Of a stretch of DNA of 64,000 bases, positions 45,663 through 57,879 are shown in pieces. The translations under genes were made by a program, and so were the position numbers. The stretch comes from Acidobacteriaceae bacterium. GTDB lineage: Bacteria; Acidobacteriota; Terriglobia; Terriglobales; Acidobacteriaceae. The first letter of the stretch is position 1, and the number at the start of each line of letters is the position of its first letter. The notes beneath the pieces were generated by a model that saw only the letters and a program-made list of their open reading frames with translations, was not told where the DNA came from and made no database searches. The stretch lies in NCBI GenBank assembly GCA_030041305.1, contig JASHOC010000309.1, positions 1-64,000 of the forward strand, read 5' to 3'.

Positions 45663-46026
45663 ACAAACAACCCGCACTGCTGCCTCCATCGTTCCCCAGC
45701 CCTATCGCGGAAAGGATGGGGAAGATCAGCCGCACGGCTACAGCGTTTTCGATTCTGCTCTCTACAGCAACCGGAAACCCGAGTGGCGTTTTCCTCTCCG
45801 GGGTCCCCAGCGAGTGATTTGCGCTCGCTGGGGTGGCTCTCCGGGGTCCCCAGCGAGTGATTTGCGCTCGTTGGGGTGGCTCTCCGGGGTCCCCAGCCAG
45901 TGATTTGCGCTCGCTGGGGTGGCTCTCCGGGGTCCGCAGCCAGTGATTTGCGCTCGCTGGGGTGGAAACAAACGCCACCTTGCACAATGCCGAGATGGCG
46001 AGATTTGAATCGAAAACGCTCTCGCT
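45663..46026. other. Convergent intergenic region with tandem hairpins
   Basis: Between the VOC gene (plus) and the dienelactone hydrolase gene (minus). It contains the 4 x 43-bp array and nothing else I can identify. Confidence 0.5.
45794..45965. repeat. Tandem array of four 43-bp hairpin units
   Basis: Four head-to-tail copies of exactly 43 bp (45,794-45,836; -45,879; -45,922; -45,965), each CTCTCCGGGGT followed by CCCCAGCGAG-TGATTTGCG-CTCGCTGGGG and TGG. Copy 1 is a perfect 10-bp stem with 9-base loop; copy 2 has one G-T pair, copy 3 one mismatch, copy 4 two. There are no spacers, so it is not CRISPR. Located between convergent genes, it may stop transcription from both sides. Confidence 0.9.
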
Positions 46027-46865: not shown

Positions 46866-47663
46866 TTAAGGCGCCCAGAAAGGCTCGCCGCTCCTGACGA
46901 ACTGAACCGGGACCTCGGGCGTGAACGACCGGATCCAATCGGCCATTTCCAGCATCCCCGGCTCTTCTGACACATTGTGGCCGAGCATGATCCAGCCTTT
47001 GGGATTGCCTAGCGTCATGGCGTCGAGAACGTACTCCGGGCTGTCGAGAAATCCGTCGCTTTCCTGCTGCTCTCCACTGACCACCACGTCCACATCGAGA
47101 TCATTGATGCTGGGCGTCGCGTAACCCACTCCCAGGTGCAGGCGGCGCACCTTCGCGTTGGGGTCGCCCACCACTCGCATCGCCCTAATAGCGAGCCGCT
47201 TCTGAAATGTCGCCGCCATTTCCCCGAGCGTCGTTTCAGGAAGCGCAAAATGGTGCGATTGCGGCGCGGTCTCCCACTCGCTCTTGAGGCCGAGAGCCCG
47301 CGCCAGGCCCACGTAGATCCAATCGGGTTTGTGCGCGTGCATGTGATCGTGCATGCGGAACACGACCACGTTGTGCTCGCGCATGGTTTCGACCTTGAGT
47401 TTGTAGGCCGGATCGCGGCTCACGATCGACACGTCGTCTCGATCGTTCCAATACGTGTCCTCATGCGGAACCATCATGTTGCAGCCCGCTTCGACGGCGC
47501 GCCGGATGGCGTCGTACGAATCGAACATCGTTGTGGCGATCCCGTGGACGACGGTGTCGGGCCCTCCGAACTTGTACGTGTCGCGGTATGTCCTCGTCAT
47601 CCACGGAAAACCAAGATTGGCCTTGATGCGGATCACCACATCGCTTGCGGTCAGCGTACTCAT
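46866..47663 (-). CDS. Nif3-like dinuclear metal-centre family protein
   Basis: 265 residues. Pattern of the Nif3/DUF34 family: GIATTMFDSYDAIRRAVEAGCNMMVPHEDTYW, FRMHDHMHAHKPDWIYVGLA, VRRLHLGVGYATPSINDLDVDVVVSGEQQE, and MLGHNVSEEPGMLEMADWI. Histidines and glutamates of a two-metal site are visible. Function of the family is unsettled (a hydrolase role has been proposed). It is coupled by an ATGA overlap to a second, exported paralogue. Confidence 0.82.
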   Translation of the reverse strand: MSTLTASDVVIRIKANLGFPWMTRTYRDTYKFGGPDTVVHGIATTMFDSYDAIRRAVEAGCNMMVPHEDTYWNDRDDVSIVSRDPAYKLKVETMREHNVVVFRMHDHMHAHKPDWIYVGLARALGLKSEWETAPQSHHFALPETTLGEMAATFQKRLAIRAMRVVGDPNAKVRRLHLGVGYATPSINDLDVDVVVSGEQQESDGFLDSPEYVLDAMTLGNPKGWIMLGHNVSEEPGMLEMADWIRSFTPEVPVQFVRSGEPFWAP

Positions 47664-48613
47664 GCGTTTGGCCTCCAGTACGGATCGCCGGCCGAAACCG
47701 CTGTCGAATCAACCTCGGGAACGATGGTTTTGAGCCACTGGGCGCACACCCGCATTCCCGGTTCCTCGGAGACCACGCGGCCAACAAGGATGAGCGACTT
47801 TTTCCCGCCGAGCGCCACCGTGTCGCGCACGTACTCGACAGATTCCCACTCGCGCACCTCGCCTGCGATGATCGCATCTACGCCTGTGAGCATCTCAAGC
47901 GAGGCCTGAATGGGCGTCGTTCCCGGCAGCAGGCCTACCTTCGTTACGCGCAGATCCGGATGCCCCACGATGCGCATGCCGCCGCGGGAGTTGAGCGACT
48001 TCTTTATGTGCAATACGAGCGCCTCAAGCGACGTTTCCGGTATCGCGATGTGTCGCGGATCATCGGTGCTGGTGAATTTTGTCCAACCGAGCCCATCAAC
48101 GAGCCCCTGCGCATACGGATCGGGCGTGCGCAGCCGCCAATGGTCGCTGAACCTCCACACCACGAGATTGTGTTTCCGAATGAAGTCGTCCTTGCCCGAG
48201 AAAACCGCATCGGGCGGAGGCGGCGCAGACGGCGTCTCCATCGGAACAAAGCGGCCATCGGCGCCGCGCACGAACTGGGGCCGCACTGGGGGCGTCGGCG
48301 TGTCGGCTTTCGAGAAGAATGTCGGTTCACAGGTGACGATCAGATTCGCCCCCGACTTCACCGCTTGCCCGAGCACGTTCAATGTTGGGAGCGCGGTGGT
48401 GACAATGCCGGTGACTTCCGCCGAAGGATCGCCCGCCTTGAACGTGTCCACCGTGTCCGCCTGCCATTCGACGCCGAGATTCTTCTTGATCCGATCGACA
48501 ACTTCCTGTGCGGTAACCGCGCCGCTCATTGACCGCGCCCTGAGCGTGAGAGGTGCGGTCGCCATGCCGGCTGCGGCGAGTCCAACAAATTTACGGCGTG
48601 AGATCCGGTGCAT
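47660..48613 (-). CDS. Exported Nif3-like family protein (Tat signal)
   Basis: 317 residues. The N-terminus MHRISRRKFVGLAAAGMATAPLTLRA is a twin-arginine signal, so it should act in the periplasm. The body parallels its downstream paralogue: VTGIVTTALPTLNVLGQAVKSGANLIVTCEP, FIRKHNLVVWRFSDHWRLRTPDPYAQGLVDG, VTKVGLLPGTTPIQASLEML, and LVGRVVSEEPGMRVCAQWL. The first metal site has a Cys-Glu instead of His at the usual LIVxH position, so metal binding may differ. The pair is translationally coupled. Confidence 0.8.
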   Translation of the reverse strand: MHRISRRKFVGLAAAGMATAPLTLRARSMSGAVTAQEVVDRIKKNLGVEWQADTVDTFKAGDPSAEVTGIVTTALPTLNVLGQAVKSGANLIVTCEPTFFSKADTPTPPVRPQFVRGADGRFVPMETPSAPPPPDAVFSGKDDFIRKHNLVVWRFSDHWRLRTPDPYAQGLVDGLGWTKFTSTDDPRHIAIPETSLEALVLHIKKSLNSRGGMRIVGHPDLRVTKVGLLPGTTPIQASLEMLTGVDAIIAGEVREWESVEYVRDTVALGGKKSLILVGRVVSEEPGMRVCAQWLKTIVPEVDSTAVSAGDPYWRPNA

Positions 48614-48964
48614 GGGGTCCTGTTTTCACCGCAGGGCAGGGTGAAGGAGTCATTGACGATTACCACCATCATAACTGCGCACTCGAACTTTTGGCTCTAA
48701 GAATAGCGTGTGCTTAGCGTTCCTACGCTTTCGCCGATTGCTTTGTCGCGTTACGGTGAACTGGGGGCCGAATCCCGCTGGTCACCTTAACGAGGAGATG
48801 GGAACACCGCCTTGGCGATTATTCTGAAGGGTGACGCCAAGGCCTGACCCGCATCAACGGAATTTCGCCAGGGAAAAGTTTCCTTCGGTCGTTTCTTCAA
48901 TGTCGAGTGATCGTTCTCGGCCTCCGGCCGGGCGTAACTTGAATTCGCAGGAGGCGAAGACGCA
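48614..48964. other. Intergenic stretch between divergent genes
   Basis: Upstream region of the exported Nif3-like gene (minus) and the RyR-domain gene (plus). I see only a GGAGG ribosome site at 48,951 for the RyR gene and a small CGGCC-TCC-GGCCG palindrome near 48,918. No gene, tRNA or clear promoter pair. Confidence 0.4.
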
Positions 48965-49255
48965 ATGAAAACTTACACCCCCAAAACCCTCGACACTTCG
49001 CGTATTGAGCTGCCCGATTCATTGGACGAGCTCGTCGAGCAACTTGCGGAGAATAATCACGACCATTGGGCCAGAATGCGGATCGAAGAGGGCTGGACCT
49101 ACGGCCCAAAACGAAACGACGAGCGCAAGGAACATCCCGATTTGGTTCCCTACGGCGAGCTACCGGAGGCGGAAATGGAATATGACCGCAAAACCGTTCT
49201 CGAAGCCCTGAAGGCAATCATCGCGCTTGGCTATGAGTTAAGGAAGACGCGTTAA
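48965..49255 (+). CDS. Stand-alone RyR-domain protein
   Basis: 96 residues. HDHWARMRIEEGWTYGPKRNDERKEHPDLVPYGELPEAEMEYDRKTVLEALKAIIALGYEL covers residues ~31-92 and carries every conserved position of the ryanodine-receptor RyR repeat (PF02026): WA..RI..GW.YG, HP.L.PY..L...E...DR, LK.I.ALGY. GGAGG precedes the ATG. Prokaryotic RyR domains are thought to bind small nucleotide-like ligands and recur near TIR/SLOG-type conflict genes; the TIR gene starts the neighbouring transcription unit here. Function otherwise unknown. Confidence 0.9.
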   Translation: MKTYTPKTLDTSRIELPDSLDELVEQLAENNHDHWARMRIEEGWTYGPKRNDERKEHPDLVPYGELPEAEMEYDRKTVLEALKAIIALGYELRKTR

Positions 49256-49289
49256 CGGCGATCCCTGAATGTCCGAATCGGCCTCGCTG

Positions 49290-51140
49290 TCACGACAGCA
49301 TCGCCGCTTTGATTTTGAAAGCGGTCTCTTTCAAAATCCTGCGCTGTTCGACTTCGGGGAGCCCGTCCAGCGGCTTGCTGAGGTCGTGCGCCGCCTGGTA
49401 CTTGGCCAGATTGGTTTCCTCATACATGGCGGGGCTGAGATAAAGCCAGATGAGGCTGACCTCACCTTTGTCCACCGCCTGAAGAACAGCTGGGAGCTCA
49501 TGTTTGCGGATGAATTCCGAGTAGAGGAACTCCGCGCTGACCAGCAGCACGGCGACCCGGCAGGTGGCCATCGCGTCTTGAATTTGCCGAAACCAGTCGG
49601 CGCCCGCGGGAATACGGTTATCGGCCCATAGATCCAGCTCGTCGCGCTCGGTCAGCAGCGGCTTCAGCATGATTTCGAGCTTGTCCCGCCAGTCGGTATT
49701 CTTGTGGCTGTAACTTAGAAAGATGCGCCGGGTGCGCTGGGGTGGCGGATCGAAGATCGCTTTCAGTTTCTCCTGCAGCGGTTTGTCTCCGGCATGGCCC
49801 GCAATCTGCTGCGCCTGCTGCCCCGCGGAGACTAGCTTCCAGGTTTCCGGCTTCATCGCCACGGCCGCTCTGTATTTCTCGAGGGCGCGATCGTACTCGC
49901 TGAGGTAAAGGTAAGCCTCGGCTTCCGTAGCGACGCTCCAGACGTCCGGAGGCGCTTGCCTCCGGGCAAACTCTTGCGCCAGCCGCGCCATCTCCCCCGC
50001 CTCGTCGGCCCGTTCAAAGGCAACCTGTTTGAGAAACGCGACGTTGATGGCGTGGTAGAACACCTGCCCGATGGTCTCCTGGGTTTCAGGAGTAGCGCGG
50101 GCCATGCGCAACGCAGCTTGATAGAGTTCCAGCGCCCATTTTGCGTCTTCTTCTTCGCCATCCTGCAGCCATCTCCGCTTGATGCGGCCCGCCAGAGTGC
50201 CCGCCACGTCCGTACCCAAGTGCTGATAGCGCTGCAAAAGTTCAATTGCCTGGGAACGCTTGTTGGCGCGGTCCAGGGCCAGAGCCGCTTCCACCACCTG
50301 CTCCTGGGTAGTAAATTTCTGGCGACCCTCGGCGCCGGCCTCGGCAATCGCCATGCCGGTGGGCACGGAGGCCCCGACCTCCGCCGCAATGCGCAACGGA
50401 GAACGCGGGCCTTCCGGCTCCGCAGATTGGGCCAGGACACTCACCAGCAGCCGCACCGCGTCCGCATCCTTATCGGGCGGTTTCACCATGCTGAGGTGGT
50501 CGCCGCGCACCACGCGCTGATGCCGGGGCGCAAAGGGTTCGAGCGACGAATCCGGGGTGACGAACTGGTCTTTGTCTCCGGCGATGGCATAGAACCGGAA
50601 GGGCGGATCGGCGCCGAACGCCTTCGACCAACCGCGCCGTAAATTGGTGACGAACTCGCCATCCGAGGCCATATTGTGAATTTGTTCGCCTACCAGGAAA
50701 CCGAGCAGACGGGAAAGAATCCTGGCCTTGCGCAACCCGGCGCTGGGAGTTCCAAACAGGAAGACGAAACCGATTCGCTTCGCCAACTCCGGATTCGAGG
50801 CCAGCGCTTCCTGCACGATCAGCCCACCCATGCTGTGCGCAATGATCGCCAGCTTCCCATATTTCGAGAGCGGGGTGATTTCAAGCTCGTTTTGCAAGAG
50901 CTTTGCCAGAATGGGTAACTCCGGATCGGCAGACCAGATTCCGCGCGTGCCGGGCAGAAAACTGGTGTTGTACCCAAGGCTGAGAATGTCCCAATCGTTG
51001 AGAGACTCCTCGGCCCCCAGCAACAACGGAAACCGGTCCCACGTCTCATCCAAATCTCCCGTGAAACCGTGCACGAAAAGCATGGCCGAGCTGGCGCCCG
51101 CACGGGTGCGAATCTGCAGTATCTGGCGGCCTTCTTTCAT
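49290..51140 (-). CDS. Three-domain protein: alpha/beta hydrolase, TPR-like linker, C-terminal TIR
   Basis: 616 residues. Residues ~15-235 are a lipase/PGAP1-like hydrolase: FVHGFTGDLDETW, nucleophile Ser103 in IAHSMGGLIVQ, Asp near 189-191 (AGDKDQF) and His215 (GDHLSMV). Residues ~270-460 are helical TPR-like repeats. Residues 471-616 are a TIR domain: RRIFLSYSHKNTDWRDKLE, DELDLWADNRIPAGADW, VAVLLVSAEFLYSEFIRKHE; Glu548 sits where NADase TIRs carry the catalytic Glu. It may cleave NAD+ and also hydrolyse an ester or lipid. A TATAAT box only eight bases before the ATG suggests a leaderless mRNA. It converges with the RyR gene and is divergent from the STAND operon. Confidence 0.88.
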   Translation of the reverse strand: MKEGRQILQIRTRAGASSAMLFVHGFTGDLDETWDRFPLLLGAEESLNDWDILSLGYNTSFLPGTRGIWSADPELPILAKLLQNELEITPLSKYGKLAIIAHSMGGLIVQEALASNPELAKRIGFVFLFGTPSAGLRKARILSRLLGFLVGEQIHNMASDGEFVTNLRRGWSKAFGADPPFRFYAIAGDKDQFVTPDSSLEPFAPRHQRVVRGDHLSMVKPPDKDADAVRLLVSVLAQSAEPEGPRSPLRIAAEVGASVPTGMAIAEAGAEGRQKFTTQEQVVEAALALDRANKRSQAIELLQRYQHLGTDVAGTLAGRIKRRWLQDGEEEDAKWALELYQAALRMARATPETQETIGQVFYHAINVAFLKQVAFERADEAGEMARLAQEFARRQAPPDVWSVATEAEAYLYLSEYDRALEKYRAAVAMKPETWKLVSAGQQAQQIAGHAGDKPLQEKLKAIFDPPPQRTRRIFLSYSHKNTDWRDKLEIMLKPLLTERDELDLWADNRIPAGADWFRQIQDAMATCRVAVLLVSAEFLYSEFIRKHELPAVLQAVDKGEVSLIWLYLSPAMYEETNLAKYQAAHDLSKPLDGLPEVEQRRILKETAFKIKAAMLS

Positions 51141-51148
51141 AGGGCAGG

Positions 51149-51154
51149 ATTATA
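51149..51154 (-). promoter_or_regulatory. TATAAT box immediately upstream of the TIR gene
   Basis: Consensus -10 hexamer on the minus strand ending eight bases before the ATG at 51,140. No ribosome binding site follows. Transcription from it would start at or next to the A of the ATG. No good -35 is visible. Confidence 0.45.
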
Positions 51155-51221
51155 ATTCGGCTTGATTTCCCTGCGTCAGAATTCCCGGGCGTGATTCCTG
51201 GCTGATCCTAGCATTATTTTT

Positions 51222-54023
51222 GTGAAGAACCTACCAAAAAAGCGGACCATCCGGATCTTTATCTCTTCGCCTGGGGATGTCGGCGAGGAGCGCAGTATTG
51301 TCCGCCGGGTGATCGAGCGGATCAGCGAAGATCTCCCGGGCGGCTGCGTTTTGATTCCGGTGGACTGGACTGACCGGCGAGCCCGCACCGCTTTTCTTGC
51401 CACGCTCACACCGCAGCAAGCCATTGAACGCGGGTTGCCGGCTCCGGACAAATGCAGCATCGTCGTGGTGATTCTCTGGTCGCGCATGGGCACGCCGCTC
51501 GACCCGTCCACCTACCGAAAACCTGACGGAAGCGCCTATCTTTCCGGAACTGAATATGAATATGAGATTGCTGCCGCGCGCGCCCGGGTGTGCAGTCGTC
51601 CCAGGGTCCTCATCTTCCGCCGCACAAAGGCTCCGTCCGTGACCCTCGACGACCCCCTCTATGAAGAAAAGGGCCGCCAATGGAACCTGCTGAAGCATTT
51701 TTTCTCCAGATTCGAGAAACCGGACGGCCCTTGGAGCGGGAGCTACGAGTCCTACGCGACCCCCGGCGAATTTGAGACGCTTGTCGAAGCTCTCTTGGGG
51801 AAAGAAATAAAGGGGAATCAGGGAATTCTCTCGGAGGAGCCGGACGCGGAAGAACTGGCTGCCGCAAACGAGCCGCCCTGGCAGGGATCGCCGTTTCCAG
51901 GACTACGGGCGTTTCAGCCCATGGATGCGCCCATCTTTTTCGGACGCGAGCGTGAGATCGAGCAGTTGATCGCGCAATTGCGGGTTGCGGATACCCGCTT
52001 TCTGGCCATTGTGGGCGCCAGCGGCAGCGGGAAGTCGTCGCTGGTCCGCGCCGGCCTGATTCCGCGCCTGATGGAAAACGCCATCGCGGGCAGCAGTGAT
52101 TGGCGGTGGGCGTGCTTCACTCCGGGCGGAGCGTGCGGCGATCCCTTCCTGGCGCTCGCTTCATCCTTGGCCGAAGTCGAAGAAGGTCTGCCGGATCTCG
52201 ATCCGGCCGCGCTGGCGGCCAAGCTCCTTCGCGACCCCTCCAATACGGCGCTCGTTTCCGACTACGCCCTTCAAAAAGCGCCCGCCGCGGCGGAGCTGCT
52301 TCTGGTCATCGATCAACTCGAAGAGTTGTTTACCCTCGTCGCGCCCGAACGTCGAGAGCCGCTCATCGAGTTCATCGATCGCGCCGTCAAGCATCCTCGA
52401 TTCCGCGTCGTGACGACATTCAGGGCCGATTTTTACCATCGCTGCATCGAGATTCCCAAGCTGGCGCAATTGCTCAGAACCGCATTTCCGCTCACCGCCC
52501 CCGATGCCGTCACGCTTCACACCATGATTCGGCGGCCGGCCGAGTATGCGGGCCTCGAAATGGAGAGCGATCTAGCGCAGCGCATTGTGGAAGACACAGG
52601 GACTCATCCCGGATCCCTGGCGCTCATGGCGTATCTGCTCGATGAGCTCTACCGGGAAACGGCCACGACTGGCAGCCGCACCCTCGGTTACACGGCATAC
52701 GAAGCCTTGGGCCGGGTGCAAGGCGCCATTGCGCATCGCGCCGAAAACATCTTCGCGCAACTCGACCGCGACGCCCAGGAGGCCTTGCCGCTGCTGGCGT
52801 CGGAGCTCGCGCAGGTGGATGATCGCGGCGCCGTTTCGCGGCAGAGAGCCCCGCTCAAGCTCTTCGCCAAAAATGCCGCCGCGTTGCAATTAATTGACGA
52901 GCTCACCCAAGGTCGCCTCCTGGTGCAATTCGGTTCGGAAACCGGGGAGCCGATCGTGGAAGTCGCACATGAAGCCTTGCTGCATGGCTGGGACCGGCTC
53001 GATTTGCTGATTCGCGCCACCCTGGAAGACCGGCGCTTGCTCGCCCAGATGCGCTCGGCGGCCGTCCAGTGGGAGCAACACGGGAAAAGCACGGAATTCC
53101 TCTGGACCCACGAACGTTCCCTGGAAATGGAGCGCATGTTAGCGCGGCTTCATCCCTCCCTCAATGCGATCGAACAGGAGTTCGCGCGCCCTGAAAGCGC
53201 ACACCTCCTCGACCGGCTCCTGCGGCTGGAAACCAATCATGACGATCGGGCGCGGATCGGCGATCGGCTTGACGAGCTGGGCGATGCGCGGCCTGGAATC
53301 GGCGTTCTCCCCGACGGCTCGCCGCACCTCGATTGGGTGCGCGTGGATGTGAAGCCGGCCTCAAGCTATGCTCCGCCCGATTCGGTCAGCGTCATGATTG
53401 GGAACCTGCCCGTTCAAGTGCGGCCCTTCTACGTTGCGCGCTACCCTATCACCTATGCGCAATTTCTCGCTTTCGTGGAAGCTTCTGACGGTTTCAGGGA
53501 ATCGCATTGGTGGAAAGACCTTGAAGTCACAGACCATCAGCGTCTGAATCCCGGCGTGCAAGCGAGAAGAATCCGCAATCATCCTGCCGAGAATGTGTCA
53601 TGGTATGATGCTGTTGCTGCATGCCGATGGATCAGTGCCCGGCTCGGGTTCAAGGTGAGATTGCCGGAGGAAGCGGAATGGCAGCTCGCCGCGGGGGCTA
53701 ATCGAGACAATTTTGATTATCCATGGGGAAAACTCTGGCAGCCCGGGTTCGCAAACACGTCGAAGAGCGGCCTGAATCGCACCATTGCCTGCGGCATGTA
53801 TCCCCAGGGCGCGTCACCCTGCGCAGCGCTCGACATGTGCGGCAACGTGTATGAATGGACCGCAACTCCGGGCTACGAACCGGGCAAAAGGATGGTCCGT
53901 GGTGGCTCCTGGTACCATGCCCCGGCAGAGGCAACCGTCGCCGCACGGCAGAATTTTTTTGCTTACGAGCGCCAGCCTTATTGTGGTTTTCGCGTAGCCT
54001 GCACTTCACTTCCTCATCGCTGA
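51222..54023 (+). CDS. DUF4062 - nSTAND NTPase - FGE-sulfatase fusion protein
   Basis: 933 residues from a GTG start. Residues ~9-180: TIR-like DUF4062 domain (TIRIFISSPGDVGEERSIV). Residues ~223-560: nSTAND1-type P-loop NTPase, introduced by PFPGLRAFQPMDAPIFFGRE, Walker A GASGSGKSS (265-273), Walker B LLLVIDQLEELF (Asp364). Then winged-helix/helical segments to ~690. Residues ~730-933: formylglycine-generating-enzyme-like (SUMF1) domain (RPFYVARYPITYAQFLAF, RLPEEAEWQLAAGANRDN, DMCGNVYEWTA, RGGSWYHAP). STAND proteins are NTP-driven switches that oligomerise on sensing a trigger; FGE-like domains often serve as ligand-binding modules. First gene of a three-gene operon. Confidence 0.92.
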   Translation: MKNLPKKRTIRIFISSPGDVGEERSIVRRVIERISEDLPGGCVLIPVDWTDRRARTAFLATLTPQQAIERGLPAPDKCSIVVVILWSRMGTPLDPSTYRKPDGSAYLSGTEYEYEIAAARARVCSRPRVLIFRRTKAPSVTLDDPLYEEKGRQWNLLKHFFSRFEKPDGPWSGSYESYATPGEFETLVEALLGKEIKGNQGILSEEPDAEELAAANEPPWQGSPFPGLRAFQPMDAPIFFGREREIEQLIAQLRVADTRFLAIVGASGSGKSSLVRAGLIPRLMENAIAGSSDWRWACFTPGGACGDPFLALASSLAEVEEGLPDLDPAALAAKLLRDPSNTALVSDYALQKAPAAAELLLVIDQLEELFTLVAPERREPLIEFIDRAVKHPRFRVVTTFRADFYHRCIEIPKLAQLLRTAFPLTAPDAVTLHTMIRRPAEYAGLEMESDLAQRIVEDTGTHPGSLALMAYLLDELYRETATTGSRTLGYTAYEALGRVQGAIAHRAENIFAQLDRDAQEALPLLASELAQVDDRGAVSRQRAPLKLFAKNAAALQLIDELTQGRLLVQFGSETGEPIVEVAHEALLHGWDRLDLLIRATLEDRRLLAQMRSAAVQWEQHGKSTEFLWTHERSLEMERMLARLHPSLNAIEQEFARPESAHLLDRLLRLETNHDDRARIGDRLDELGDARPGIGVLPDGSPHLDWVRVDVKPASSYAPPDSVSVMIGNLPVQVRPFYVARYPITYAQFLAFVEASDGFRESHWWKDLEVTDHQRLNPGVQARRIRNHPAENVSWYDAVAACRWISARLGFKVRLPEEAEWQLAAGANRDNFDYPWGKLWQPGFANTSKSGLNRTIACGMYPQGASPCAALDMCGNVYEWTATPGYEPGKRMVRGGSWYHAPAEATVAARQNFFAYERQPYCGFRVACTSLPHR

Positions 54024-54047
54024 TTTCCCTCTCGAAGGAATCGACTC

Positions 54048-55064
54048 ATGCCCGAATCACCGCAAGTCGCCGCACCGCAAACTGTTGAGCCCGATCTGAA
54101 ACCCGTGGCTTACGTTTCCATGGATCCCACTCCCGATCTCGAAGCCGTCTATCTCAAGATCGTCAAGCCGGTGCTTGAGAATCACGGCCTCATCTGCAAA
54201 CGATCCGAGAGCCGCGACTGGGCGAGCATTATCACTCCGCAGGCCCTTGAATACATTGATGAGGCCGACCTCGTCCTCTGCGACCTTACGCGCAGTTCGG
54301 TTCGAACCTATTACGAGTTGGGAATCGCGCACGCGTTCAGAAAGAACACCGTTCTCGTCTCGCAAGCAACGGCTGAAATCCCCTTCGACACTCGCTATCA
54401 GCGCGCCATTGCCTACAAAGACGACCGGTTCGGCCTGCTCGAATTGCGCGATAGCCTTTCCGACGTCCTCGACACCATGTATTCTCGCGAGGCCGCGAGC
54501 GCAGCCGCTACCCGGGTCTCCTGGGAAACGGTGGCCAGGAACGATGGGGAACTCGAAAGCGCCCGTATCGCTCTCTTTCATACCACTCCTGAAGCGCGGC
54601 GTTACGCGTTGCGCATTCTGGGCGACTATCGCGACGACGTATCGTACGACAAGGTGCTCTGGCTCATCACCAAGGGCACTGAGTCGCCTGACGTGGTGCG
54701 CGATGGACTTACGACTCTGCACAAAATCAATCCCGAGAAAGCGCTGGACCAATTGCAGGGCCGGTTTGGCCTTTGGCACCCCGATTTTTCCGTGCGCGAG
54801 CGCGTGGTCCTTTTGCTGGGAAACTATGCCAAGACACCGGAATTGGTCAATCGCCTCATGGATCAAATGGGCGATACAAGCTGGGGCGTGCGCCTGGCCG
54901 TCTGCCAAGTACTGGGAAAGTGGTGCGCGGCCGAGGCGGTAAATATCCTTCGTGAAAGGCGGAGCGTGGATCCCGAGCAGGTGGTGCGCCTGGCTGCCGA
55001 TGAGGCGTTGCGCTCCATCCGCCGCGCGGAAGGGCAGGTGAGCCGTGACGCGGTATCACAATGA
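54048..55064 (+). CDS. Nucleoside deoxyribosyltransferase-like domain fused to HEAT repeats
   Basis: 338 residues, start preceded by AAGGAA, 24 bp after the STAND gene. Residues ~18-130 have the Nuc_deoxyrib_tr fold: PVAYVSMDPTPDLEAVYLKI, IDEADLVLCDL (Asp79) and SSVRTYYELGIAHAFRK, where Glu90 sits at the position of the catalytic Glu of the family. Residues ~165-335 are HEAT-like helical repeats (RRYALRILGDYRDDVSYDKV; GVRLAVCQVLGKW). The domain could cleave or bind a nucleotide-type ligand such as NAD or a nucleoside. It overlaps the next gene's GTG start by 20 bp. Confidence 0.8.
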   Translation: MPESPQVAAPQTVEPDLKPVAYVSMDPTPDLEAVYLKIVKPVLENHGLICKRSESRDWASIITPQALEYIDEADLVLCDLTRSSVRTYYELGIAHAFRKNTVLVSQATAEIPFDTRYQRAIAYKDDRFGLLELRDSLSDVLDTMYSREAASAAATRVSWETVARNDGELESARIALFHTTPEARRYALRILGDYRDDVSYDKVLWLITKGTESPDVVRDGLTTLHKINPEKALDQLQGRFGLWHPDFSVRERVVLLLGNYAKTPELVNRLMDQMGDTSWGVRLAVCQVLGKWCAAEAVNILRERRSVDPEQVVRLAADEALRSIRRAEGQVSRDAVSQ

Positions 55065-57135
55065 AACCTCCGTGTTCGCCAATCCCAGCCAGCCTCGCCG
55101 GTCTCTGGCCGCTGCGGGCCCTGAGGCGAATGTTGAGCCGAGAATTGGCGTCAGCTTTCTCGGCGAGCGGCTGCGCCAATCGAGCCTGTCGCTGTTCGAT
55201 ATTGCTCCCCTTGAGTTCAATGACGCCCGCCGGGAGCTGGTCGCGGTTCTGGCCAACCTGAACACTCCGGCCGCTCAAAAGCGCCTCGCCGCCTTCACCA
55301 CGGATAGCGACGCGTTTACCCGCACCGCGGCCTGCATTGCCTTGCTCCAGTTTGGCGATGCCCGCGGCGCCGATGGCCTCTTCAACGCCATCAGCCGGTT
55401 CGAATGGAAGCAGCGCCAGGAAATGGCCGACGCGCTCGGGTTTTCCGGATTCTCCGCCACGCTGCCCATCCTCCTGCGCCTCGTCAAAGATAGCGATTAC
55501 GACGTGCGCCGCAGCGCCGCGAATGCGCTCGGGAATCTCGGATTACCCGAAGCCATTCCCGACCTGGTCGACGTGGCAGGGCAGGATTCGAACGATGGCG
55601 TGCGGGCCTATGCCGCCCTGGCGCTCGCCAAATTGGGCGAATCACTGGATGCGGTCACGGCGGCAAGCTATCTCGAAGCCCCCCCCACAGCCGCGTTCCA
55701 ATTGCGCGGAGCAAGCGCGCTGATGCGGCTCGGAAATCGTGCTGGTAGAGGCGCACTCCGCCGCATGGTTGAGCAGTCGTCTCCGCCATATCCCGAATTG
55801 GCCGCCGCCATGCTGGTCCATGGCGAAGGCTGGAAAGATCTCGAATTGGTTCAGTGGCTCGTCAAGAGTTCCAATGACAAGGTCCGATTGGTGGGCGTGA
55901 TGGCGCTTTGCCGGTCAAGCGATGAAGCCGCGTTCACCACGCTCATGGATCGGCTGTATTCCGACAGCGCCGAAATCCGGGCGACTATCACCGCTTGGCT
56001 GTCCATCTGCCCCAATCCCGCCGCGCCAGGAGCCCTGCTCCGGGTGGTCGAAAGCACTGACAGCTCGCCGCGCCTAGGTGAAGCGTTGGCCGCGCTCGCG
56101 CGCCGCGAAGAGCCGTTGCCTGGCGAAACCATCTTCGCGTGGGCTGCAAACTACCAACCCGAAGTTCGCGAGGCCGCCGCCCAGTGGCTCGCCAGTTGCC
56201 ACGATTCCACCGAGGCTCTCGACCGGCTTTTGACTCTGGCCGAAGATGAAGGCAGCGATATCAGCGCCAATGCGCTTGTCTCCCTCTCCGAGTTCGACGA
56301 TCCGCGCGTCTTCCCGGCGCTGATCTCCAAGCTCCAGAGCAAGTCCTGGCAGCAACGCCTCGGCGCCACGCTCGGAATCGAGGTCATGGGCAAACGCGCC
56401 GAGAATCTTCTGGTGGACATGATAGACGACGTCCAGGAGCACGCAAAGCTGACCCCGCTCATCGACTTGCTCTCGCGCATGGAAGGTTCGCCCCGCACCC
56501 GGCGCGTAATTCTTGAGCGCGCCTTGGCGGACCCGGCGATATGGATCAAAACCGCGGAACAGGTCGCCGCATCCGGCGATCAATCTGCGGTTCCAGGGGA
56601 TCCATCGGTAATTCCCAGTGTGACCGCCGCTCTTTCTTCGCCGGACGCGCGCATCCGCCAGACGGCTGCAATCGCGCTGGGCGCCATCGGCGACGACGCG
56701 ACCATAGCTCCGCTGTTGGAAGTGCTCTCCGATGTGAGTTGGGAGGTGCGCGTACGCGCGGCGCAGAGTCTCGAAAAAGTGACGGCGCGCAACCCGGAGC
56801 TGCTTCACCAGGGACTGCGGGTTCGCAAACCCGGCGTGCGCGCTCGGGTTGCCGAGTTGTTGGGTCGGGTGCACGGCTCAGGCTCTTCTGCGGCCTTGAT
56901 CGAAGCCATGTCCGACGGAAATCGGCTGGTCCGCGCCAACGCCGCCGGAGCCCTCGGCATGATCGGCGACCCACGCTCCGTTCCAACACTGATTCAGGCT
57001 CTCCAAGACCCGGACCGCGGGGTAAGAAATATGGCCGCCGGCGCCCTCAAAGAAATCGGCGGCGACGAGTCCCTCGCGGCCGTACGGGACTGGACCCTGG
57101 AGCGAAGGGCCTCTGCGGAAGGGCAGACAAACTGA
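55045..57135 (+). CDS. Large HEAT-repeat scaffold protein
   Basis: 696 residues from a GTG that lies 20 bp inside the preceding gene, so translation is probably coupled. Nearly the whole length consists of HEAT repeats (DSDYDVRRSAANALGNLGLPEAIPDL; DVSWEVRVRAAQSLEKV; DGNRLVRANAAGALGMIGDPRSV; DPDRGVRNMAAGALKEIGGDES), about 15 or more. No enzyme motif is seen. It likely binds partners, nucleic acid or ligand as a curved scaffold for the neighbouring STAND and deoxyribosyltransferase-like proteins. Confidence 0.88.
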   Translation: MTRYHNETSVFANPSQPRRSLAAAGPEANVEPRIGVSFLGERLRQSSLSLFDIAPLEFNDARRELVAVLANLNTPAAQKRLAAFTTDSDAFTRTAACIALLQFGDARGADGLFNAISRFEWKQRQEMADALGFSGFSATLPILLRLVKDSDYDVRRSAANALGNLGLPEAIPDLVDVAGQDSNDGVRAYAALALAKLGESLDAVTAASYLEAPPTAAFQLRGASALMRLGNRAGRGALRRMVEQSSPPYPELAAAMLVHGEGWKDLELVQWLVKSSNDKVRLVGVMALCRSSDEAAFTTLMDRLYSDSAEIRATITAWLSICPNPAAPGALLRVVESTDSSPRLGEALAALARREEPLPGETIFAWAANYQPEVREAAAQWLASCHDSTEALDRLLTLAEDEGSDISANALVSLSEFDDPRVFPALISKLQSKSWQQRLGATLGIEVMGKRAENLLVDMIDDVQEHAKLTPLIDLLSRMEGSPRTRRVILERALADPAIWIKTAEQVAASGDQSAVPGDPSVIPSVTAALSSPDARIRQTAAIALGAIGDDATIAPLLEVLSDVSWEVRVRAAQSLEKVTARNPELLHQGLRVRKPGVRARVAELLGRVHGSGSSAALIEAMSDGNRLVRANAAGALGMIGDPRSVPTLIQALQDPDRGVRNMAAGALKEIGGDESLAAVRDWTLERRASAEGQTN

Positions 57136-57226
57136 AGGCCGGCCCTCCCACGCTGTCCGGTTTTTTGAATGCGCGCGAGCACGTCGCCACGCTACAATGG
57201 CTTCCATCTCTCCCACGGAGGCGCAC

Positions 57227-57673
57227 ATGCACAGGCTTCTCTTCGCGGCTCTCGCCCTATCTTTTGCCGCCGCCCCGCTCTTCGGCCAGGGAGCGCCGCC
57301 GCAAGGCGCCGCCGGCCAGCCCTATGCCGTCGAGTACTACTACAAGGTCCAATGGGGTCATCAGCAGGAGTTTCTCTCGCTCTTCCTCAAGAACCACTAT
57401 CCGCTGCTCAAGAAAATCCAATCCACCGGCCGCATTCTCTCGCTCAAAGTCGAGTCCCCTGCCTACCACACCACCGAGGACGGCCGCTGGGACTATCGCG
57501 TAACGATCATTTACAAAGACTCCACCGCGGCCACCACGGCAAATCCCGACGAAGAGTCATTCATCAAGCAGCTCTGGCCCGATCAGGAGACGTATCAAAA
57601 AGAAGAACAGCGCCGCTTCGAAATTCTCGCGGCGCACTGGGATCTGCCGGTTACGGACATTACGCCGAAGTAG
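57227..57673 (+). CDS. Secreted protein of unknown function
   Basis: 148 residues from the ATG at 57,227, with GGAGG six bases upstream. Signal peptide MHRLLFAALALSFAAAPLFGQ. Mature part begins with YAVEYYYKVQWGHQQEFLSLFLKNHYPLLKKI, followed by TTEDGRWDYRVTIIYKD; it resembles a dimeric alpha-beta barrel (EthD/ABM-like) but I cannot assign a family. It follows the HEAT operon by ~90 bp and may be unrelated to it. Confidence 0.75.
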   Translation: MHRLLFAALALSFAAAPLFGQGAPPQGAAGQPYAVEYYYKVQWGHQQEFLSLFLKNHYPLLKKIQSTGRILSLKVESPAYHTTEDGRWDYRVTIIYKDSTAATTANPDEESFIKQLWPDQETYQKEEQRRFEILAAHWDLPVTDITPK

Positions 57674-57739
57674 TGGCCCATGGTCGGAGATCAGGGATCC
57701 GTCCGCCACTGGTGGCCTGTGTTTTCGGGTCCAATTATA

Positions 57740-57848
57740 GCGGTTCTCCAATTGGTGTAGAGCAGAACCTCGAACGTTGAGTGGCGTTTTTCCCAAGAAA
57801 ACGCCACCCGGCACGCCCCTCAAAACTTCACGGCAATTGGAGAACCGC
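57740..57848. repeat. 109-bp element with 15-bp perfect inverted ends and an internal hairpin
   Basis: GCGGTTCTCCAATTG (57,740-57,754) is the exact reverse complement of 57,834-57,848. Within the interval, GTGGCGTTTT/AAAACGCCAC (57,781-57,790 with 57,798-57,807) makes a second perfect stem with a 7-base loop. It is non-coding and lies between convergent genes. It fits a MITE-like insertion or an elaborate bidirectional terminator; no target duplication is obvious. Confidence 0.75.
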
Positions 57849-57879
57849 CGTAAATCAGGGGATGAATCGACAGCATTGC

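What the first reader, a model, noticed from the sequence alone, without database searches (positions are those of the whole stretch)
48965..57135. Candidate undescribed conflict/immune island: RyR + hydrolase-TIR + STAND-FGE + deoxyribosyltransferase-HEAT + HEAT
Four domain types known from NAD/nucleotide-centred bacterial immunity (TIR, DUF4062, nSTAND NTPase, nucleoside deoxyribosyltransferase-like) sit together with a stand-alone RyR domain and HEAT scaffolds. Three genes form a tight plus-strand operon (gap of 24 bp, then a 20-bp overlap), with the TIR gene divergent 81 bp away and the RyR gene convergent with it. The STAND protein could sense a trigger, the HEAT proteins could scaffold, and TIR plus deoxyribosyltransferase-like domains could deplete a nucleotide. 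I do not know of a named system with this exact composition. Co-localisation could be chance in a genome rich in such proteins.
Basis: partly seen in the sequence, partly recalled or inferred. Interest (0 to 1): 0.8.

Follow-up and report, generated by a model that had tools for sequence, protein, structure and literature searches.

The report
RyR gene paired with TIR immunity
A five-gene bacterial immune-type island joins a TIR enzyme of the NAD-consuming kind to a small protein related to a domain of the animal ryanodine receptor, and the same pairing recurs in distant bacteria, which suggests that bacteria may use such proteins to sense or switch off TIR immune signals.

Summary
All five are collinear in one sister-level genome (85.7% DNA identity up to its contig end) with dN/dS 0.06-0.23, so they form a unit; that exact set was found only in those two genomes. 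The broader result: RyR genes of this class sit beside TIR or TPR-S genes far beyond chance. TIR lies within 2 kb in 10 of 28 other genomes (0.12 expected), TPR-S in 7 of 28 (0.04 expected), in several phyla, plus a Priestia plasmid. The RyR keeps all four ligand/catalytic residues of phage RyDEP, reported in May 2026 to cleave 2'/3'cADPR; these are better kept in this class than in other, mostly fused, RyR domains. Best reading: a STAND-gated, NAD-centred immune module in which RyR binds, and perhaps hydrolyses, the TIR product, as off-switch or receptor. STAND–FGE, TIR and TPR-S systems are known kinds; I found no paper describing the host RyR partner, but two key papers were not readable. 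Function is untested.

The parts
48965..49255 (+). Stand-alone RyR-domain protein, 96 aa; ligand/catalytic set H32, W35, H57, D74
   Evidence: Pfam 3e-34; AlphaFold2 pLDDT 95.3; Foldseek TM about 0.9 to Bacteroides RyR 6uag and 3nrt; alignment to DyoEdafos gp78
49290..51140 (-). alpha/beta hydrolase (weak) - TPR-S - TIR protein, 616 aa; TIR E548 present; nucleophile context AHSMGG
   Evidence: PADLOC ThsB 1.5e-13
50031..50306 (-). TPR-S (sensor) domain inside the TIR protein
   Evidence: 9.9e-10
49377..49724 (-). TIR_2 domain
   Evidence: 1.6e-10
51141..51221 (.). 81-bp divergent intergenic region between the TIR and STAND genes; no sigma-70-like promoter pattern found
   Evidence: coordinates
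51222..54023 (+). DUF4062 (weak) - nSTAND1 NTPase (Walker A K271) - FGE/FGS lectin-fold domain, 933 aa
54048..55064 (+). NDT/DrHyd-like domain (E90 in the YYELGIAHA context) plus HEAT repeats, 338 aa
55045..57135 (+). HEAT-repeat protein, 696 aa
48804..48964 (.). Left edge of the block shared with L040; the shared DNA begins 161 bp before RyR, so RyR belongs to the block
   Evidence: blastn
57136..57172 (.). Probable right edge: sequence from 57173 (in one genome; 57226-57266 in others) on is collinear with six fetched same-genus stretches that show nothing but short scattered matches upstream

Best explanation
The five genes are one NAD-centred immune (conflict) module. Proposed order of events: (1) the STAND protein senses an invader through its C-terminal FGE lectin-fold domain, with the nSTAND1 NTPase as threshold switch and the DUF4062 head as output [inferred]; (2) the TIR domain of the hydrolase-TPR-S-TIR protein, and possibly the NDT-like domain of NDT-HEAT, cleave NAD+ or a related nucleotide to an ADP-ribose-type product [inferred from families; catalytic Glu present in both]; (3) the TPR-S domain senses such a product and gates the hydrolase [inferred]; (4) the HEAT protein scaffolds [inferred]; (5) the small RyR protein binds, and may hydrolyse, the TIR-derived cyclic ADP-ribose, setting a threshold or ending the signal [inferred]. 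Shown here: gene content, conservation as a block in two genomes, purifying selection, intact RyDEP-type pocket residues, and non-random RyR-TIR/TPR-S linkage across phyla. Not shown: any activity.
For: Block conserved with all five genes in L040 under purifying selection. RyR within 2 kb of TIR_2 in 10 of 28 genomes (0.12 expected, P 4.5e-18) and of TPR-S in 7 of 28 (0.04 expected, P 9.4e-15), either within 5 kb in 14 of 28. After dropping three sister genomes and three partial or poor RyR matches: 8 of 22 and 4 of 22, and still P 6.6e-7 and 1.2e-4 if TIR/TPR-S density around RyR is taken as 10 times higher. Control: none of the 110 N6_Mtase matches in the same 29 genomes lies on a contig carrying the RyR counted (read from the table). 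The same toolkit reshuffled: L041 has RyR, hydrolase-TPR-S, HEAT-TIR, a TPR-S protein whose start resembles the window NDT head (26%, 6e-7), and TIR-NB-ARC, and there a second, degenerate RyR is convergent with the hydrolase-TPR-S gene, 58 bp away, as in the window; L052 has RyR, TIR-FGE, TIR-kinase and a weak NDT-like protein; L043 has RyR, DUF7379-CHAT-TPR-S (TPR-S weak), pentapeptide-TIR and another TIR protein. Priestia plasmid: a cyclase-annotated protein with TPR-S, RyR 16 bp on, a TIR gene about 1.4 kb further. RyR residues equal RyDEP H75/W78/H100/D117: H 28/28, W 28/28, H 25/28, D 28/28 in this class v 31, 28, 13 and 23 of 32 in other, mostly fused, RyR domains.
Against: No activity data. 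14 of 28 RyR genes have no TIR or TPR-S match within 5 kb; some sit near a contig end (for example L042, L054) or beside TrkA-RyR or AAA-RyR proteins (L044, L045, L057), and some beside genes with no immune signature. The exact five-gene set is known from two sister-level genomes only. The phage homologues tested besides RyDEP did not cleave, though most bound (PMC13232231), and Ruegeria/Pectobacterium phage RyRs keep the four residues, so the residues do not prove hydrolysis. In TrkA-RyR and RelA-RyR fusions RyR looks like a sensor rather than an off-switch. RyR next to cyclase-TPR-S proteins could mean that its ligand is a cyclic nucleotide, not cADPR. The N6_Mtase control is weak: only 0.10 expected by chance in the 22-genome set.
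Confidence: 0.5

Rival explanations
1. RyR is the receptor arm: it binds the TIR (or NDT) product and activates a partner effector in trans, as SLOG does in ThsA.
For: RyR is fused to TrkA, RelA/SpoT and AAA-containing proteins, as a regulatory domain would be; solved human RyR3 Repeat12 structures hold ATP, ADP and AMP-PCP (titles).
Against: The window RyR is a lone 96-aa protein without an effector domain; this class keeps the RyDEP D and H more strictly than other, mostly fused, RyR domains (28/28 v 23/32 and 25/28 v 13/32), as expected if these residues matter more there.
Confidence: 0.27
2. Two neighbouring systems: RyR plus hydrolase-TPR-S-TIR is one, the DUF4062-nSTAND1-FGE/NDT-HEAT/HEAT operon another, side by side in a defence-rich region.
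For: Divergent transcription; RyR-TIR/TPR-S recurs elsewhere without this STAND-HEAT operon; STAND-FGS proteins are described as widespread on their own (PMC8195603, passages).
Against: All five stay together in L040; an NB-ARC, an NDT-like and a HEAT domain recur near RyR in L041, and FGE and weak NDT-like domains in L052.
Confidence: 0.25
3. Chance clustering in a genome rich in such proteins.
For: The genome has 7 TIR_2 matches and 3 TPR-S matches; RyR is absent from the three same-genus genomes and NDT-HEAT from the four.
Against: Block conservation with purifying selection; cross-phylum RyR-TIR/TPR-S enrichment.
Confidence: 0.04

Closest known systems
STAND NTPase-FGS conflict systems with nSTAND1 (Kaur et al. 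2021, eLife 10:e70394; abstract and passages seen)
   Same: Effector-type head, STAND NTPase (nSTAND1 named there) and C-terminal FGS/FGE domain proposed to sense invaders; TIR partners described.
   Different: The text has 0 occurrences of RyR, TPR-S and DUF4062; no hypervariation seen in the FGE C-terminus here.
Phage RyDEP (DyoEdafos gp78) RyR-domain glycosidase and sponges (PMC13232231; text parts 1-2 of 6 and passages read)
   Same: PF02026 domain with all four ligand/catalytic residues.
   Different: On a bacterial contig among ordinary genes rather than in a phage; beside a TIR gene rather than in an NAD-synthesis operon; activity unknown.
Thoeris (ThsA/ThsB)
   Same: TIR domain scoring to PADLOC ThsB with catalytic Glu.
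   Different: No SIR2, SLOG or Macro domain among the five proteins; TIR fused to hydrolase-TPR-S.
TPR-S systems sensing NAD+-derived signals (Burroughs & Aravind 2020, J Bacteriol; recalled, not held)
   Same: TPR-S fused to a TIR and a hydrolase.
   Different: Whether RyR was listed there I could not check.
Bacteroides thetaiotaomicron stand-alone RyR (PDB 3nrt, 6uag)
   Same: Same fold and size, about 50% identity.
   Different: No function named in the entry titles.

Membership tests
Thoeris | TIR (ThsB) with catalytic Glu | tested here: met
Thoeris | ThsA effector (SIR2-SLOG or other cADPR-gated effector) | tested here: not met
   No SIR2, SLOG or Macro match in the five proteins
STAND-FGS conflict system | N-terminal effector/EAD, STAND NTPase, C-terminal FGS in one protein | tested here: met
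   the head DUF4062 is below the Pfam cut-off
STAND-FGS conflict system | Frequent diversification of FGS by a DGR | tested here: inconclusive
   Last 90 or so residues of the STAND-FGE protein 94-95% identical between two genomes, no hypervariation; reverse transcriptase not searched
RyDEP-type RyR protein | PF02026 domain with H75/W78/H100/D117 equivalents | tested here: met
RyDEP-type RyR protein | Binding or hydrolysis of 2'/3'cADPR | not testable with these tools
   needs biochemistry
RyDEP-type RyR protein | Encoded by a phage | tested here: not met
   Pfam of 10 flanking ORFs: 7 gave ordinary bacterial families (TonB receptor, glyoxalase, DLH, NIF3 twice, epimerase, HAD), 3 gave none, no phage family; PHROGs not searched
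TPR-S NAD-signal systems | TPR-S domain fused or adjacent to an NAD+-processing domain | tested here: met
   (definition recalled)
Nucleoside deoxyribosyltransferase / DrHyd | Rossmannoid fold with catalytic Glu | tested here: met
   Foldseek to NDT 8pqq and DNPH1 with weak E-values, about 6e-4 to 2e-2 (TIR domains also among the hits); E90 kept in 12 of 13 aligned sequences

The most novel reading that the evidence does not exclude
Bacteria carry their own dedicated off-switch for TIR immune signals: stand-alone RyR proteins, encoded beside TIR/TPR-S genes in several phyla, bind and hydrolyse cyclic ADP-ribose isomers, the counterpart for TIR signalling of the ring nucleases of type III CRISPR. 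Phage RyDEP would then be a captured host regulator, and animal ryanodine receptors would carry a relic of the same nucleotide-signal module.
Probability: 0.3. Interest if true: 0.85.

Novelty: new variant of a known kind. Interest (0 to 1): 0.62.

Why it matters
How TIR signals are ended in bacteria is open: the RyDEP preprint says that before it no proteins were known to hydrolyse 2'/3'cADPR. Stand-alone RyR proteins linked to TIR/TPR-S genes give small, purifiable candidates for a host-side signal hydrolase, sponge or receptor, and a possible bacterial origin for the RyR domain that binds adenine nucleotides in animal ryanodine receptors.

Tried and rejected
Exact five-gene conservation beyond sister genomes: NDT-HEAT searched in 80 family genomes (9 match at E<=0.001, the own genome among them) and 396 phylum genomes (8 match at E<=1e-12, the own genome among them); apart from its own genome no full-length relative. 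Exact-peptide scan of viral contigs with the hydrolase–TPR-S–TIR protein: 2 stretches, no relative; with RyR: one locus, L065. RyR in phage records: 122 records match at E<=1e-5, 2 of them over at least 80% of the query; the one annotated phage neighbourhood viewed for that search is among structural genes, not TIR. DGR diversification of FGE: no hypervariable C-terminus. Horizontal transfer argued from identity: not supported, since two long flank pieces in the other genome are 83 and 87% identical, like the block. Promoter scan: nothing. My first ORF picks for L059 and L068 were in a wrong frame and gave no Pfam match; the right frames carry TPR-S and look cyclase-like at the C-terminus by eye, not scanned with Pfam; L068 in the right frame had no PADLOC match. 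PADLOC has no match for RyR; of 10 neighbour proteins from other RyR loci 3 match, to TIR-type and similar models. The NDT-HEAT model is good only over the NDT half (mean pLDDT 61.9). Literature: searches (listings) showed no paper placing bacterial RyR beside TIR/TPR-S; Burroughs & Aravind 2020 and Burroughs et al. 2015 are not held, so prior description there is not excluded. The N6_Mtase matches were compared with the RyR contigs by reading the table, not by script.
Full report
What is there. Pfam gives RyR (3e-34), TIR_2 (4.8e-10) with a TPR-S domain (3.2e-9) before it and a weak alpha/beta hydrolase head, nSTAND1 (2.4e-98) with FGE (2.3e-33) and a sub-threshold DUF4062 head, a sub-threshold NDT-like head on HEAT repeats, and a HEAT protein. 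TIR E548, Walker K271, NDT E90 and a hydrolase AHSMGG motif are present (that these are the catalytic positions is family knowledge). The NDT half folds like NDT/DNPH1 enzymes, with weak Foldseek E-values and TIR domains among the hits. PMC9503650 (passages) groups DrHyd with TIR and SLOG as NAD+/ADPr-processing domains; that the NDT-like domain here is a DrHyd is my inference.

Is it a unit? A genome-contig scan with the RyR found L040 (Acidobacteriaceae MAG JOPF174, RyR 85% identical). Window 48804-56013 aligns to L040 at 85.7% over 7218 columns, through all five genes in the same order, until the L040 contig ends inside the HEAT gene. dN/dS is 0.126, 0.129, 0.141, 0.055 and 0.231 for RyR, TIR, STAND, NDT-HEAT and the first 322 aa of HEAT; a shifted-frame control on one gene gave 0.93. 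The alignment starts 161 bp before RyR, so RyR belongs to the block; the DNA left of it differs. Two flank pieces elsewhere in that genome are 83 and 87% identical: a sister-level genome, not proof of transfer. To the right, six fetched same-genus stretches are collinear with the window from 57173-57266 on and show only short scattered matches upstream. No RyR match was found in the three same-genus genomes and no NDT-HEAT match in the four. RyR is rare: 15 of 347 phylum genomes, own genome included.

RyR and TIR/TPR-S. The RyR scan gave 25 loci in 25 genomes (L040-L064, handles G414-G438); three phylum genomes (G140, G248, G359) were added. TIR_2, RyR and TPR-S were located in these 28 and in the own genome; matches at E<=0.001 were counted, a few of them under the Pfam cut-off. 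Taking the best RyR of each genome and leaving the own genome out, TIR lies within 2 kb in 10 of 28 (0.12 expected), TPR-S in 7 of 28 (0.04 expected), and either within 5 kb in 14 of 28. Dropping six rows (G414, G422, G433 as sisters of others; G359, G436, G438 as partial or poor RyR matches) leaves 8 of 22 and 4 of 22, still unlikely if local density is ten times higher. As a defence-island control, the 110 N6_Mtase matches in the 29 genomes fall on none of the RyR contigs counted (weak, since only 0.10 is expected by chance in the 22). G140's second stand-alone RyR, 200 bp from a TPR-S match, was not counted. The 14 positive genomes include records labelled Acidobacteria/Terriglobia/Holophagales, Syntrophomonadaceae, WOR-3, Thermoguttaceae, Thermodesulfovibrionia and Proteobacteria. 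A Priestia plasmid, found separately, has a cyclase-annotated TPR-S protein, RyR, and a TIR protein. Three of the four plasmid hits were viewed: of the other two, one has RyR in a large protein with a weak AAA match, near a SIR2 gene, and one lies near a phage baseplate gene.

The same toolkit recurs reshuffled. L041: HEAT–TIR, hydrolase–TPR-S, a TPR-S protein whose start resembles the window NDT head (tblastn 26%, 6e-7; no Pfam NDT match), RyR, TIR–NB-ARC; a second, degenerate RyR is convergent with the hydrolase–TPR-S gene at 58 bp, as RyR is with the TIR gene in the window. L052: sub-threshold SLATT match, TIR–FGE, TIR–kinase, sub-threshold NDT-like protein. L043: DUF7379–CHAT with weak TPR-S, pentapeptide–TIR, TIR with weak AAA_16. 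L046: cyclase–TPR-S, RyR, TIR–beta-helix. L058: SLATT, TrkA–RyR, and RelA/SpoT–RyR with weak TPR-S and SLOG matches. L056: DUF4062 and an NTPase–TPR protein. Neighbours with no immune signature also occur: transketolase (L066), a kdo-transferase family protein (L044), a laminin-G protein (L042).

RyR chemistry. The model (pLDDT 95.3) matches Bacteroides RyR and human RyR3 Repeat12 entries, including complexes with ATP, ADP and AMP-PCP. The preprint PMC13232231 (parts 1-2 of 6 and passages read) reports that phage DyoEdafos gp78 hydrolyses 2'/3'cADPR using H75 and D117, with W78 and H100 as ligand contacts; six of eight homologues bound the signals, and none of these other homologues cleaved. 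I fetched gp78, confirmed those residues at those numbers and aligned them to H32, D74, W35 and H57 of the window RyR. In 28 RyR rows of this class (window and a viral contig included; L060 is the start of a longer frame; L062 and L064, split or partial, left out) H32, W35 and D74 are invariant and H57 is 25/28; in 32 RyR domains from other, mostly fused, proteins they are 31, 28, 23 and 13 of 32 (for H32, W35, D74 and H57; Fisher P 0.002 for D74, 1e-4 for H57; rows are related, so these are guides). RyRs of a Ruegeria and a Pectobacterium phage also keep the four, so the residues do not separate enzyme from sponge.

Judgement. That the RyR–TIR/TPR-S link is functional I put at about 0.85; that RyR handles an ADP-ribose-type ligand at about 0.6; off-switch rather than receptor at about 0.6 given that. 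STAND–FGS, TIR and TPR-S systems are known kinds; the host-side RyR partnership is what I did not find described in the listings, with the stated gap of two papers not held. PMC9503650, which lists ADPr-processing domains, has no occurrence of 'RyR' or 'ryanodine' in its held text.

Noticed in passing
window 57735-57855: About 120-base repeat between two genes, 97-99% identical to at least six other places in the same genome (capped list), weaker copies in same-genus genomes; folds into a long hairpin as single-stranded DNA, z -6.84. Looks like a dispersed palindromic repeat.
   Followed up: partly
window 45732-46025: Second set of short repeats shared with many places in same-genus genomes.
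   Followed up: no
L041:3261-3542: A second, degenerate RyR copy (1 TGA and 1 TAG inside), convergent with the hydrolase-TPR-S gene; an intact RyR lies about 3 kb away.
   Followed up: partly
L058 (G432): Cluster with three RyR domains: stand-alone, TrkA-RyR, and RelA/SpoT-RyR with weak TPR-S and SLOG matches, plus a SLATT membrane protein and an inositol-phosphatase-family gene.
   Followed up: partly
L160 (Priestia aryabhattai plasmid): Pycsar TM effector, cyclase-annotated TPR-S protein, RyR and TIR within about 8 kb: a possible hybrid of Pycsar and TIR signalling in a tractable group.
   Followed up: partly
window 46866-48613: Two adjacent DUF34/NIF3 genes just left of the block.
   Followed up: no
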